A program made the translations under genes and the position numbers. A stretch of 24,598 bases of DNA from a bacterium (GTDB lineage: Bacteria > Cyanobacteriota > Vampirovibrionia > Gastranaerophilales > UBA9971), in the NCBI GenBank assembly GCA_037147175.1, contig JBAWVS010000041.1:1-24598 (forward strand), in the 5' to 3' direction. This document shows, one piece after another, positions 1 through 20,654 of this stretch. The notes beneath the pieces are model-generated. The model was not told the DNA's origin. It searched no databases and saw nothing but the letters and a program-made list of their open reading frames with translations. The number at the start of each line of letters is the position of its first letter. Within the stretch, counting starts at the first letter, position 1.

Positions 1-1388
<1,388 letters not shown>

Positions 1389-2418: not shown

Positions 2419-5115
2419 TTATACCAATTCAAGGCATGCCTTATTTATTTTTTCTTGTATTTTTTCAATTTCAAGAGTTGCTAATTTTTGTCTAAATATT
2501 GTTGACTCTTTAATGGAATCAACAAAAGTCTGATATTCAGGCTGCTCAACCATTGTATTTAATTCCTTACTTCCCGAAAAATTAAATTTAATTGAATCTT
2601 CGTTAATTTCCAAAACTTCTATAACCTTAGCGCTGTCAAGCAATTCAACACATGCCAGAATGGACTCTGATGAAATAGAAAGAATAGACGCCATCTGTTC
2701 AATATTTATAATGCCGTTTTTGTTATTAAAAGCATATTTGAGCATGCTGGAAAACTTTTTTATTGTTTCAACATGATCAATTTCAATTTTTAAACCTATC
2801 AGATAAATTTCTTTGGCATGCGTTTTACTTAAAATACTGAAAAAAGTTTTTTCATCAGGAGGCAAGTCCATAATAACAAGATGATCTGATTTTTTAAGGT
2901 TTGTCCTGTTTGAAATAAGTTCTTTTAATACCGTATTATTCTCGAAAATATTTAAAGAACGGCTTGTTTCGGCAAAAATCGTAATATTATTCTTTAAAGA
3001 CTTCATATATTTTACAAAATCTTTTTTTAGCCCTGTTGCATTTCTTTGATCAAACCACTTTATACCGTTGTTATTAAGCTCACATGTATTGCCATGCCCT
3101 GCTCCGGCAGAAGAATTTGTACTGATTGCAACTGTAGATTTTGCTTCCTCTCTCACAGTTGCTTCATTTCGCCCGGGAGGACAGGCAGATTTTAAATGAC
3201 CGGTTTTATCAAAGGTTTCTTTTTCGGCTTTCTCTGTTTGACTGCTATTCTTAAATCGGGTTTCCTCAGAACTTTGCTCTGACTCCAAAGACTTTTCGCA
3301 ATCTGCAATAATTTCAGAAATTTCTTCTGTTTCTAACTCGAAAAATTCTTCTTCAGTTTCTTCTTCATACACCTGTTCTTTGTCAGAAGTCGGTTTTAAA
3401 TCTTTTACAATCAATTGAATTGAAGTTTTATCCATAAATGTATTTAATGCCGCAGCAAAAGCAATATTAACTTTTTCCCCTTCTTCTATATGAAGGTTTT
3501 CTTTTTTCCACCATACTGCTTCAAAAATTAACCCCTGCTCATCAGAAAGAAAAAGTTTAAGATGATTTTTTTTAGCGCCCATTTTCTTTTTTTGCATCAA
3601 AGTAAGATTTGACATACTAAAAACAGGACTCGGGTTTGCTTCTCCAAACGGCTCCAGCTTTTCAATTTCTTTTATAAAATTTTCCGTCAGGTCTTGCGGC
3701 TGAATTTCAACATCAATTCTTAATTCCGGTTTTAATAATTCCGTATTTAAATTTTCATTTATATATGAATCCAATTTTTCTCTGAACCGCTCAAAGGTTA
3801 TTTTGTTTAAATCAAAAGAAAAACCTGCGGCAAGGGCATGCCCTCCAAACTGAATAAATAAATCGGCAAATTCCGAAAGCGTTTCAAATAAATTTAAACA
3901 ATCAACGCTTCTTGCTGAACCTCTTGCCTGCATTTTTTCTTCGCTTATCGAAACTAAAAAAGCAGGTCTATAATATTTTTCAACAAATTTTGAAGCAACT
4001 ATTCCTATAATTCCGGGATGCCAATCTTTGTCGGCAAGGATTATAGATTTACTTTTTTCAAGGTCTATTTCTTCTTTGATTTTTTTTTCAGCCTGAAGAA
4101 AAGTTTCTTCACACATTTCCTGCCGTTTTTTATTATTTTCATTTAATTCTTCGACATAAGCGTTTAATTTTTCTTCATCTTCGGTTAATAAAAAATCAAC
4201 CATGGGAGAGGCATCTCCCAATCTTCCTACAGCATTGATTTTTGGCACAATACCAAAAGCTATGGTTCCCGCTGAAATTTTTTGTTTTGTTTTATACCCG
4301 CCTATTTCAAGAATTTTCCCGATAGCGGGAGGTTTTTTCTGAGAAATTAAATTCATTCCCTGATGGACAAAAGTCCTGTTTTCCCCCAAAAGCGGCACTA
4401 CATCCCCAACTGTTCCGAGGGCTACAAAATAAAAAATTTCATCATGTAAATGTTCTTTATTGTTGGATTCCAATAAAGCGACAGCCAATTTATAAGCAAC
4501 TCCGACACCTGCCAGATGCTGTATATTTTTATTTAATTCAGTTTCTTCAAGCATTTTAGGGTCAATAATTGCATAAGCAGGCGGGATTTCTTCCTGCGGC
4601 TCATGGTGATCGGTTATTATAACGTCTGCCCCAAAACTGTTTGCAAGCTTAATTTCGTTTACATTACTGATTCCGCAGTCTACAGTAATAAATAATTTTG
4701 TTTTTCTGCTGCTTATAAGTTTACACACATTTGCCCTGTTTAAACCATGTCCTTCGTCCATTCTGTCCGGCAGATAAAAACTTGCATTGGCTTCTAAAAG
4801 TTTTAATGTTTTATACAAAAGAGAAGTGCTTGTAACCCCATCGGCATCAAAATCTCCGAAAACAACTATATGTTCTTGTTCCTTTATAGCTTTATTGATT
4901 CTTTTTACAGCTTTTTCCATGTCAGGAAAAAGATATGGCGAAGAAATTTCTGCATTGGCAAAGTCAAGAAAGTTTTCAGCCTCTTTCGGATTAACTATTC
5001 CTCTGTTAATCAGCAGCTTCGCAATTATTTCCGAGCCTGCAACTTTTTTTATCTCGGCAAATAATTCATCGCTTATATTATTTTGAGAATAAATCCATTT
5101 ATAGCCATTTTTCAA
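2419..5115 (-). CDS. recJ: Single-stranded-DNA-specific exonuclease RecJ (898 aa, extended)
   Basis: RecJ degrades single-stranded DNA 5' to 3' in recombination and mismatch repair. The DHH phosphoesterase core is clear: VVFGDFDADGVTS (84-96), VDCG (145-148), TDHHEP (168-173). DHHA1 elements follow: HPGIIGIVASKF (366-377), ARGSARS (397-403) and the FGGHALAAGF block (423-432). An OB-like region runs to about 575. Residues 580-640 are strongly acidic and low-complexity. Residues 685-898 resemble the RecJ C-terminal domain of Firmicute-type enzymes (Pfam RecJ_C), an assignment I could not test. Residues 641-680 are unlike their surroundings and look inserted (see the repeat entry). The start is TTG: no ATG or GTG lies upstream before an in-frame stop, and the N-terminal WIYSQNNISDEL fits RecJ. 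The Shine-Dalgarno match is weak (GGTG). RecJ core proteins are usually about 560-780 aa, so this is a long form. Confidence 0.95.
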   Translation of the reverse strand: MKNGYKWIYSQNNISDELFAEIKKVAGSEIIAKLLINRGIVNPKEAENFLDFANAEISSPYLFPDMEKAVKRINKAIKEQEHIVVFGDFDADGVTSTSLLYKTLKLLEANASFYLPDRMDEGHGLNRANVCKLISSRKTKLFITVDCGISNVNEIKLANSFGADVIITDHHEPQEEIPPAYAIIDPKMLEETELNKNIQHLAGVGVAYKLAVALLESNNKEHLHDEIFYFVALGTVGDVVPLLGENRTFVHQGMNLISQKKPPAIGKILEIGGYKTKQKISAGTIAFGIVPKINAVGRLGDASPMVDFLLTEDEEKLNAYVEELNENNKKRQEMCEETFLQAEKKIKEEIDLEKSKSIILADKDWHPGIIGIVASKFVEKYYRPAFLVSISEEKMQARGSARSVDCLNLFETLSEFADLFIQFGGHALAAGFSFDLNKITFERFREKLDSYINENLNTELLKPELRIDVEIQPQDLTENFIKEIEKLEPFGEANPSPVFSMSNLTLMQKKKMGAKKNHLKLFLSDEQGLIFEAVWWKKENLHIEEGEKVNIAFAAALNTFMDKTSIQLIVKDLKPTSDKEQVYEEETEEEFFELETEEISEIIADCEKSLESEQSSEETRFKNSSQTEKAEKETFDKTGHLKSACPPGRNEATVREEAKSTVAISTNSSAGAGHGNTCELNNNGIKWFDQRNATGLKKDFVKYMKSLKNNITIFAETSRSLNIFENNTVLKELISNRTNLKKSDHLVIMDLPPDEKTFFSILSKTHAKEIYLIGLKIEIDHVETIKKFSSMLKYAFNNKNGIINIEQMASILSISSESILACVELLDSAKVIEVLEINEDSIKFNFSGSKELNTMVEQPEYQTFVDSIKESTIFRQKLATLEIEKIQEKINKACLELV
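3093..3190. repeat. Possible inserted repeat inside the recJ linker
   Basis: This stretch is clearly richer in G+C than its flanks. It contains the inverted repeat GCAACTGT (3128-3135) / ACAGTTGC (3155-3162), and its coding-strand text (CCTCCCGGGCGAAATGAAGC) looks like a non-coding interspersed repeat read through in frame. It encodes about 40 residues (roughly RecJ 641-680) rich in Gly, Ala, Ser and Arg, lying between an acidic linker and the C-terminal domain, where an insertion would be tolerated. No second copy is visible in this window, so the call is tentative. Confidence 0.4.
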
Positions 5116-19164: not shown

Positions 19165-20385
19165 ATGAATCTATACGAACACCTTAAAAAAGAATTAACT
19201 CAAATAAAAATCGATAATCTTTATCGCGACTTCAAGGTACTTTCTTCAAACTCAGGTGCTTTTGTTGAATACAGAGGCAATAAAGTCCTGCAAATGTCAT
19301 CTAATAACTATCTTGGTCTTGCAGGAGACCCGAGAATATCAGAGGCTGTCATAAAAGCTGTTGAAAAATATGGTGTCGGTTCAACAGGCTCAAGATTAAT
19401 TTCAGGAACACACAAACTACATACAGAACTGGAAGAAAAGATTGCTGAATTAAAAGAAACCGAAAAAGCCATTATTTTTTCAACAGGTTATGCTGCTAAT
19501 GTCGGTGCAATTTCAGCACTTTTAACGGAAAAAGATGCTGTATACTCTGATGAATTAAACCATGCCAGCATTATAGACGGAATAAAACTTTCCAGAACAA
19601 ATAAATTTATTTATAAACACCGTGATACACAGGATTTAGAAAGATTAATAGAAGAAAATCATAAAAAATACAGGTTTAACGTGATAATATCTGATTCTGT
19701 TTTCAGTATGGACGGAGATATAGCCCCTTTGAAAGATATTGTGGCTATAAAAGAAAGATATGGAGCTGTTTTCTTTCTTGATGAAGCTCATGCTTTCGGG
19801 ATTTATGGGAAAAAAGGGCAGGGATTAGCACATGAATTAGGCTTAAACGACAAAATAGATATCCAGATGGGGACTTTAAGCAAAGCGGCAGGCTCAGAAG
19901 GCGGATACATTTGCGGAAAATCAGATATTATAGACTACTTGAGGAACAAATCCCGTTCTTTTGTTTTTTCAACAGCCCCGTCTATTCCGTCCACAGCCGC
20001 ATCAATAAAAGCTGTTGAAGTTATCGGCAGTGATTTTGGACTGAGAAAAAAACTTTGGGAAAATATAGATTATTTTAGAACGGGCTTAAATAAAATTGCT
20101 ATTGCGAGCGGCAATCCATCCAAATTACCACACTCAACTGATTGCCATGTTGAACCTTTGACTCGCCTCGCAATAACAAAACAGTCAGAGTCAGCTATTT
20201 TTTGCATAAAATTTGATAATATCGAAAAAACCCTTGAATTTTCAAATGAATTACTGGAAAAACATGCCATCATGGCTTCTTGCATAAGACCTCCTACAGT
20301 AAAAACTCCAATAATTCGTCTTTGTACTATGACTCTGCATTCAAAACAAGATCTGGATTATGTTTTGGAAAAATTATCATTCTAA
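19165..20385 (+). CDS. Alpha-oxoamine synthase (BioF/Kbl family) with in-frame repeat
   Basis: PLP-dependent condensation of an amino acid with an acyl-CoA: either 8-amino-7-oxononanoate synthase (biotin) or glycine C-acetyltransferase. Visible motifs are NNYLGLAGDP (47-56), GSTGSRLISGTHKLH (72-86), SDELNHASIIDGIKLSR (128-144), FLDEAHAFGIYG (204-215), and the Schiff-base lysine in GTLSKAAGSEGGY (Lys240). The SRLISGT text is closer to BioF, but no other biotin gene is nearby, so I leave the reaction open. Residues 312-338 do not fit the family and are encoded exactly by a palindromic repeat. Without them the protein would be about 379 aa and LNKI would join KQSESAIF as expected. The insert lies in the C-terminal domain, away from the PLP site. 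A sigma-70 promoter lies just upstream; the Shine-Dalgarno match is weak. Confidence 0.92.
   Translation: MNLYEHLKKELTQIKIDNLYRDFKVLSSNSGAFVEYRGNKVLQMSSNNYLGLAGDPRISEAVIKAVEKYGVGSTGSRLISGTHKLHTELEEKIAELKETEKAIIFSTGYAANVGAISALLTEKDAVYSDELNHASIIDGIKLSRTNKFIYKHRDTQDLERLIEENHKKYRFNVIISDSVFSMDGDIAPLKDIVAIKERYGAVFFLDEAHAFGIYGKKGQGLAHELGLNDKIDIQMGTLSKAAGSEGGYICGKSDIIDYLRNKSRSFVFSTAPSIPSTAASIKAVEVIGSDFGLRKKLWENIDYFRTGLNKIAIASGNPSKLPHSTDCHVEPLTRLAITKQSESAIFCIKFDNIEKTLEFSNELLEKHAIMASCIRPPTVKTPIIRLCTMTLHSKQDLDYVLEKLSF
20098..20177. repeat. Palindromic interspersed element inside the BioF/Kbl-family gene
   Basis: The outer arms are GCTATTGCGAG (20098-20108) and CTCGCAATAAC (20167-20177), 10 of 11 bases complementary. 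Inner arms GGCAATC (20110-20116) and GATTGCC (20140-20146) are perfectly complementary. The 80-base unit adds about 27 codons in frame with no stop (protein residues 312-338, including SGNPSKLPHSTDCHVEPLTR). ATTGCGAG...CTCGCAAT termini are like those of small palindromic repeats known to insert in frame in Rickettsia proteins. Confidence 0.75.
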
Positions 20386-20447: not shown

Positions 20448-20486
20448 AAACTATCAACTTTTTTCTTGAGAGTTTTTAAGTATACT
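20448..20486 (+). promoter_or_regulatory. Conserved upstream element, copy E
   Basis: AAACTATCAACTTTTTTC (20448-20465), TTGAGAGTTTTTAAG and TATAC (to about 20485) match the second block of the other copies, best with C and D. The TAAC-N5-GTTA repeat is not clearly present. It lies about 170 bases ahead of the ATG at 20655, much further than in the other copies, leaving a structured leader between. Confidence 0.45.
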
Positions 20487-20504
20487 GAAACGAGTTTGTT
20501 TTCA

Positions 20505-20571
20505 GGAAAACCGGCAAAGCCGGATTTTCCCGAAAAACATCACTCCTAAAAGCTATAGCGCTTTCGCGAAA
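20505..20571 (+). promoter_or_regulatory. Structured leader of the small tandem genes
   Basis: GGAAAA and CCGGC (20505-20515) pair with GCCGG and TTTTCC (20519-20530), leaving a single bulged A, a strong hairpin without a following T-run. Two further palindromes follow, GCTATAGC (20552-20559) and TTTCGCGAAA (20562-20571). This could be a 5' untranslated regulatory region, or the hairpin could be a leftover terminator for the gene ending at 20385. Confidence 0.35.
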
Positions 20572-20654
20572 AATATTTCATTTCTTAATTACTTTTTTAG
20601 AGCACTATATATGTAATTAAAAATTATATTTAATAATTTCAGAAAGGAATCAAG

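What the first reader, a model, noticed from the sequence alone, without database searches (positions are those of the whole stretch)
20098..20177. Palindromic mobile repeat inserted in frame in a BioF/Kbl-family enzyme
An 80-base unit with 11-base outer arms and perfect 7-base inner arms encodes residues 312-338, which have no counterpart in the family; removing it gives a normal 379-residue enzyme. In-frame palindromic repeats in proteins are known from Rickettsia but I know of no report for this lineage.
Basis: partly seen in the sequence, partly recalled or inferred. Interest (0 to 1): 0.75.

Follow-up and report, generated by a model that had tools for sequence, protein, structure and literature searches.

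The report
In-frame palindromic repeat in BioF/Kbl gene
A short, hairpin-forming DNA repeat that is scattered in dozens of copies through this bacterium has landed inside an enzyme gene without breaking its reading frame, adding about 27 amino acids; a sister species shows the same habit in many genes, as first described in Rickettsia.

Summary
The observation and most of the interpretation hold. The 80 bases at 20098-20177 form an inverted repeat (outer arms 10/11 complementary, inner arms 7/7) and encode residues 312-338 of a 406-aa BioF/Kbl-family enzyme. Eight of nine other genomes of the family lack the segment, including a congener (G002) whose protein is 83-85% identical. A second congener (G001) has a longer, more canonical copy at the same site and frame. 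The exact 80-mer is unique in the genome, but a covariance model built without it still finds it (42.8 bits, E=3.8e-9) as a degraded member of a dispersed family, GTCATTGCGAG...GCAATC...GATTGC...CTCGCAATGAC: 53 distinct copies in this genome, 111 in G001. In G001, 19 copies lie in frame inside long ORFs; relatives without insert were confirmed for LeuRS and MnmE. The enzyme stays under purifying selection on both sides of the insert (dN/dS about 0.1). Best reading: a REP/MITE-like non-autonomous element, tolerated in a surface loop. This is the phenomenon known as Rickettsia palindromic elements and intragenic REPs, with a different element in an unrelated lineage; not categorically new. The mobilising enzyme, and why G002 is empty while the more distant G000 is not, remain unresolved.

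The parts
19165..20385 (+). BioF/Kbl-family PLP-dependent acyltransferase gene, 406 aa, carrying the insert; only match of its family in this genome at E<=1e-3
20098..20177 (+). inserted palindromic repeat element, degraded copy; encodes residues 312-338 (AIASGNPSKLPHSTDCHVEPLTRLAIT)
   Evidence: absent from orthologues
20098..20108 (+). left outer arm GCTATTGCGAG (family consensus GTCATTGCGAG)
20110..20116 (+). left inner arm GGCAATC
20140..20146 (+). right inner arm GATTGCC
20167..20177 (+). right outer arm CTCGCAATAAC (family consensus CTCGCAATGAC)

Best explanation
The segment is a degraded copy of a dispersed, non-autonomous palindromic element of about 72-105 bp (REP/MITE-like, termini GTCATTGCGAG/CTCGCAATGAC). 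It inserted in frame into the loop between a helix and the next strand near the start of the enzyme's C-terminal part. Shown: it belongs to the family; most orthologues lack it; the reading frame is intact; purifying selection continues on both sides; other copies sit in frame in other genes of a sister species. Inferred: copies are moved in trans by an unidentified enzyme, since the element is too short to encode one; insertions that break the frame or the fold are removed by selection; the survivors, such as this one, are carried as harmless extra loops and drift (insert 40% aa identity between G000 and G001 against about 85% in the flanks). Most likely one old insertion by a 95-nt subfamily is shared by G000 and G001, with loss or allele replacement in G002.
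For: Model R1, trained on other copies, hits 20098-20177 at 42.8 bits, E=3.8e-9; genome-wide E=4e-7. Copy numbers: 53 distinct copies in G000 and 111 in G001; also 60-106 both-strand matches in G007, G008 and G012, few or none elsewhere. Eight family members lack the segment. G001 has GTCATTACGAG...CTCGCAATGAC at the same site and frame. The flanks of the G002 empty site match the junctions: AGATT^AAAT against AAATT[element]AAAT. dN/dS upstream 0.12 and C-terminal 0.08 for G000-G001, similar to pairs without the insert. In-frame copies in LeuRS and MnmE of G001 are absent from 5 and 1 aligned relatives; insert gaps also appear against solved homologues. The two BioF copies both match best to the 95-nt subfamily, which has 13 distinct copies in G001 and no other in the fetched G000 loci.
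Against: Transposition itself was not observed and no target-site duplication is visible. No clear mobilising enzyme was found: PF01797 (Y1 transposase/RAYT) gives only a sub-threshold fragment with stops in G000 and nothing in G001 or G002. A clean excision does not quite restore the orthologue sequence, because 3-4 codons on the right and nearby bases on the left also changed. G001 and G002 are closer to each other than to G000 (RecJ 90% against 79% and 83%), so a single insertion needs a loss or allele replacement in G002; two insertions at one site are not excluded.
Confidence: 0.88

Rival explanations
1. Two independent insertions of the same subfamily at one hot-spot codon, one in the G000 lineage and one in G001, with G002 never hit.
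For: RecJ and BioF distances place G001 with G002, and G002 keeps the outgroup-like sequence SRL-NLDLMP. The G001 BioF copy is only 96th of 328 in similarity to the G000 copy. The shared left flank AAAATT also occurs before some intergenic copies. Two other loci hint at re-used sites: the RecJ linker has different fillers in G000 and G001, and two neighbouring glycosyltransferase genes in L131 both carry insert-like segments at the same position.
Against: Same base position, orientation and frame, the same changed left flank AATAAAATT and a similar loss of 3-4 codons on the right in both genomes; one event explains these more simply.
Confidence: 0.3
2. A lineage-specific protein loop that happens to form a hairpin in DNA; not a mobile repeat.
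For: The 80-mer itself is unique in the genome.
Against: Covariance-model membership, more than 150 related copies in two genomes mostly outside long ORFs, and the same peptide-coding ends in unrelated proteins.
Confidence: 0.03
3. The insert has been put to use: the added loop or the mRNA hairpin changes activity or expression of the enzyme and is kept by selection.
For: Kept in two species with an open frame; the palindrome is still foldable in G000 (z -4.5).
Against: The insert evolves much faster than the flanks (dN/dS about 0.5 over 30 loosely aligned codons against about 0.1), changed length by about 24 nt between G000 and G001, and is absent in G002.
Confidence: 0.08

Closest known systems
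Rickettsia palindromic elements (RPE; Ogata et al. 2000, 2002, as summarised in PMC10969869 and PMC3733652)
   Same: Short palindromic repeats dispersed in the genome, many of them inserted in frame in unrelated protein genes whose products are likely functional
   Different: Different lineage and sequence; the insert peptides match no NCBIfam model at E<=10; in this genome only one in-frame copy was found, against 19 in its congener
CGTC-tagged REPs (PMC3733652), including RPE-4/RPE-6 and Neisseria dRS3
   Same: Half-units start TGTC/CGTC then AT, most end in CCA or CTA, are paired as inverted dimers, occur inside genes, and have no linked transposase
   Different: Published stems are 8-9 bp with 4-5 nt loops; here the longest contiguous stem of a half-unit is 5 bp in 31 of 42 halves, and the dimers have their tagged ends outward, which appears to be the arrangement that paper calls rare
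MITEs of bacteria (review PMC10969869)
   Same: Small, non-autonomous, terminal inverted repeats, in-frame fusions known
   Different: No target-site duplication and no parental transposon identified here

Membership tests
In-frame palindromic insertions of RPE type (phenomenon) | dispersed palindromic repeat family, with copies inserted in frame in unrelated protein genes and alleles without insert in relatives | tested here: met
Rickettsia RPE families (by sequence) | encoded peptide matches a catalogued RPE domain model | tested here: not met
   10 insert peptides against NCBIfam at E<=10: no match. That NCBIfam holds RPE models is from memory, and short peptides limit the test
CGTC REP superfamily | CGTC/TGTC head, AT at the first stem positions, CCA tail | tested here: met
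   heads GTC preceded by C or T in most copies; tails CCA 21 and CTA 16 of 42
CGTC REP superfamily | perfect 8-9 bp stem with 4-5 nt loop | tested here: not met
   longest contiguous stem 5 bp in 31 of 42 half-units, 8 bp in 2
GTAG REP / RAYT system | Y1 transposase (PF01797) in the genome together with the repeats | tested here: not met
   G000 sub-threshold fragment with stops; G001 and G002 none; G001 and G002 are about 80% complete
MITE | target-site duplication and a parental transposase with the same ends | tested here: inconclusive
   no duplication seen at BioF or in flanks; a parental transposon was not searched for genome-wide
BioF/Kbl acyltransferase (host gene) | profile match over the whole length apart from the insert | tested here: met
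   TIGR00858 6.7e-117 over 20-404 and TIGR01825 4.1e-116, both below the curated cut-off; PF00155

The most novel reading that the evidence does not exclude
A lineage outside the Proteobacteria has its own proteome-wide system of in-frame palindrome insertions: a family of GTCATTGCGAG elements, moved by an unknown enzyme, repeatedly adds 25-35 residue segments to core enzymes (three insertions in MnmE, two in LeuRS of G001, from more than one palindrome family), with filled, degraded and empty alleles available in sister species. It would be a second natural test of whether selfish repeats build new protein segments.
Probability: 0.45. Interest if true: 0.65.

Novelty: new member of a known kind. 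Interest (0 to 1): 0.5.

Why it matters
In-frame palindromes were long discussed mainly for Rickettsia. Here a set of related genomes gives three states of one gene (filled and degraded, filled and canonical, empty) and about 18 more in-frame copies in one sister genome. That makes it possible to ask directly which protein sites tolerate such insertions, how fast the added segments decay, and what moves the repeat.

Tried and rejected
RAYT as the mover: not supported. Rfam: no family for the element. Phage and plasmid collections: no match to the 95-nt subfamily. A built-in tendency of the elements to be open in all frames: G001 copies outside long ORFs average 1.67 open frames of 6 against 1.69 in shuffles, so no; the G000 excess (2.35 against 1.39) comes largely from one recent, non-independent subfamily. 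Naming the organism: the single genome-contig scan returned only distant hits. Literature: nothing relevant found on such repeats in Melainabacteria.

Full report
Observation. The window holds a 406-codon gene at 19165-20385 (+) whose product matches BioF/Kbl-family models (TIGR00858 6.7e-117, TIGR01825 4.1e-116, both below the curated cut-off; PF00155). The 80 bases at 20098-20177 are an inverted repeat. The outer arms GCTATTGCGAG/CTCGCAATAAC pair at 10 of 11 positions (12 of 13 when extended) and the inner arms GGCAATC/GATTGCC pair at 7 of 7. The strand folds far better than shuffles (RNA z -4.5; DNA z -3.1). The stretch is codons 312-338. Against solved homologues the alignment runs to residue 311 and resumes at 339, across only a few residues of the homologue chain. 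From the known fold this is the loop between a helix and the next strand near the start of the C-terminal part, away from the PLP lysine in TLSKAAG; that placement is inferred, because the structure prediction failed.

Presence and absence. Protein searches of the relatives show that eight of the nine other genomes of the family lack the segment: G002 (83% identity to residue 312, resuming at 340), G007, G003, G004, G005, G006, G008 and G009. Most carry about six other residues (NLDLMP in G002, NLDVIP in G007). One congener, G001, has a 104-base canonical copy at the same site, orientation and frame: GTCATTACGAGCGACGG...GTGGCAATCTATTCGG...GATAGATTGCCACGTCGGCGCTTCGCGCCTCCTCGCAATGAC. The G002 empty site reads AGCAGATT^AAATTTAGAC against AATAAAATT[element]AAATGAAGC in G001. 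One extra base plus the 104-base element keeps the frame; 3-4 codons to the right were also lost.

Repeat family. The 80-mer has no second copy in the genome, but a looser pattern gives 33 places including itself, against 0 for the reversed control, and a two-sided pattern gives full elements in G000, G001 and G002. Twenty-two copies, the window copy not among them, gave alignment A1 and covariance model R1. R1 hits the window at exactly 20098-20177 with 42.8 bits, E=3.8e-9. The helices pair in 95.9% of cells, against 29-45% when one strand is slid, with 27 double-change cells. Both-strand match counts are 92 in G000, 134 in G001, 23 in G002, 60 in G007, 106 in G008, 75 in G012, 33 in G006, 18 in G004, 0-6 in the other family members, and 0-1 in the other families sampled apart from that of G012. 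After fetching the R1 places of G000 and G001 and removing duplicates there are 53 distinct copies in G000 and 111 in G001. Most G000 copies are one subfamily nested in a longer palindrome, TAACTCGAATTGCTAAATCGCC...TTAGCAATTCGAGTTA. The nearest relative of the BioF copy is a different, 95-nt subfamily (L200, sharing ATCCAAATTAC), to which the G001 BioF copy is also closest. The subfamily signature occurs at 13 distinct places in G001 and at none in the fetched G000 loci. The BioF copy of G000 is therefore best seen as a relic.

In-frame copies elsewhere. Nineteen of the 111 G001 copies, the BioF copy included, lie inside long open frames, against 1 of 53 in G000. Hosts include MnmE, MqnE, a NifE-like protein, a thioredoxin-reductase-like protein, transketolase, a peptide transporter and a menaquinone decarboxylase, LeuRS, and an M16-type peptidase by sequence. 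Typical peptides are CHCERSEAIQ...IASSQAPRND and VIARSEATKQS...LDCHVEAEASPRND. For LeuRS all five aligned relatives lack the insert; for MnmE the 88% identical G000 protein lacks all three G001 inserts. The gaps also appear against solved homologues. The other hosts were not checked against relatives one by one. In MnmE, LeuRS, RecJ and the reductase, further in-frame segments come from what look like other palindrome families (CHPERSEGS...QNDN).

Is the enzyme still working? It is the only family match in G000. dN/dS is 0.12 upstream and 0.08 downstream of the insert for G000-G001, as in other pairs (0.05-0.12). The insert itself is 40% identical over 30 loosely aligned codons, dN/dS about 0.5. 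The simplest reading is a tolerated loop that drifts.

History. RecJ identities (G001-G002 90%, G000-G002 83%, G000-G001 79%) and BioF distances put G001 with G002, yet G000 and G001 share the insertion. The BioF tree does not resolve the three. One old insertion with loss or allele replacement in G002 fits the shared junctions and subfamily; two insertions at one hot spot remain possible (about 0.3).

Mechanism. The element is too short to encode a transposase and no target-site duplication is visible. The REP transposase family PF01797 is missing from G001 and G002 and only a broken fragment is in G000. Movement in trans by an unidentified enzyme is inferred. Copies outside genes are no more open than shuffles in G001, so the in-frame cases are best seen as survivors of selection rather than a design of the element.

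Comparison with the known. Rickettsia palindromic elements and intragenic GTAG/CGTC REPs in several phyla are the same phenomenon (PMC10969869, PMC3733652). The half-units here share the CGTC-REP head and tail but fail its stem rule, and the peptides match no NCBIfam family. So it works like an RPE but is not filed as one. The lineage could not be named by search. Ycf23/DUF561 suggests the Cyanobacteriota side, which is a guess from memory of that family's distribution; the partial 16S gene in the window would settle it.

Noticed in passing
window 1-1388 (-): Partial 16S rRNA gene cut by the contig end; would allow the lineage to be named.
   Followed up: partly
window 2419-5115 (-) and L258, L259: RecJ linker after about residue 590 differs strongly between species; G001 holds an in-frame segment of a second palindrome family (CHPEQSEGS...CPQNDN) and G002 what looks like a remnant (SSGNSPQND).
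   Followed up: partly
L197/L271 (G001 MnmE): Three separate in-frame insertions in one tRNA-modification GTPase, all absent from the 88% identical G000 protein.
   Followed up: partly
L261 (G001 LeuRS): Two in-frame insertions of two different palindrome families in one synthetase.
   Followed up: partly
L131 (G001): Two neighbouring glycosyltransferase genes carry insert-like segments at the same position of the protein; the second is a weak match (E 0.07).
   Followed up: no
L002-L031 (G000): Most repeat copies in this genome sit inside a longer composite palindrome with ends TAACTCGAATTGCTAA/TTAGCAATTCGAGTTA.
   Followed up: no
L272 (G000 MnmE): The empty site reads AGCTGCAATGACAGT; TGCAATGAC resembles the element's right end and may be an excision scar.
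   Followed up: no
window 20460-20600: A run after the gene (caggaaaaccggcaaagccggattttcccg) forms another hairpin that resembles a terminator.
   Followed up: no
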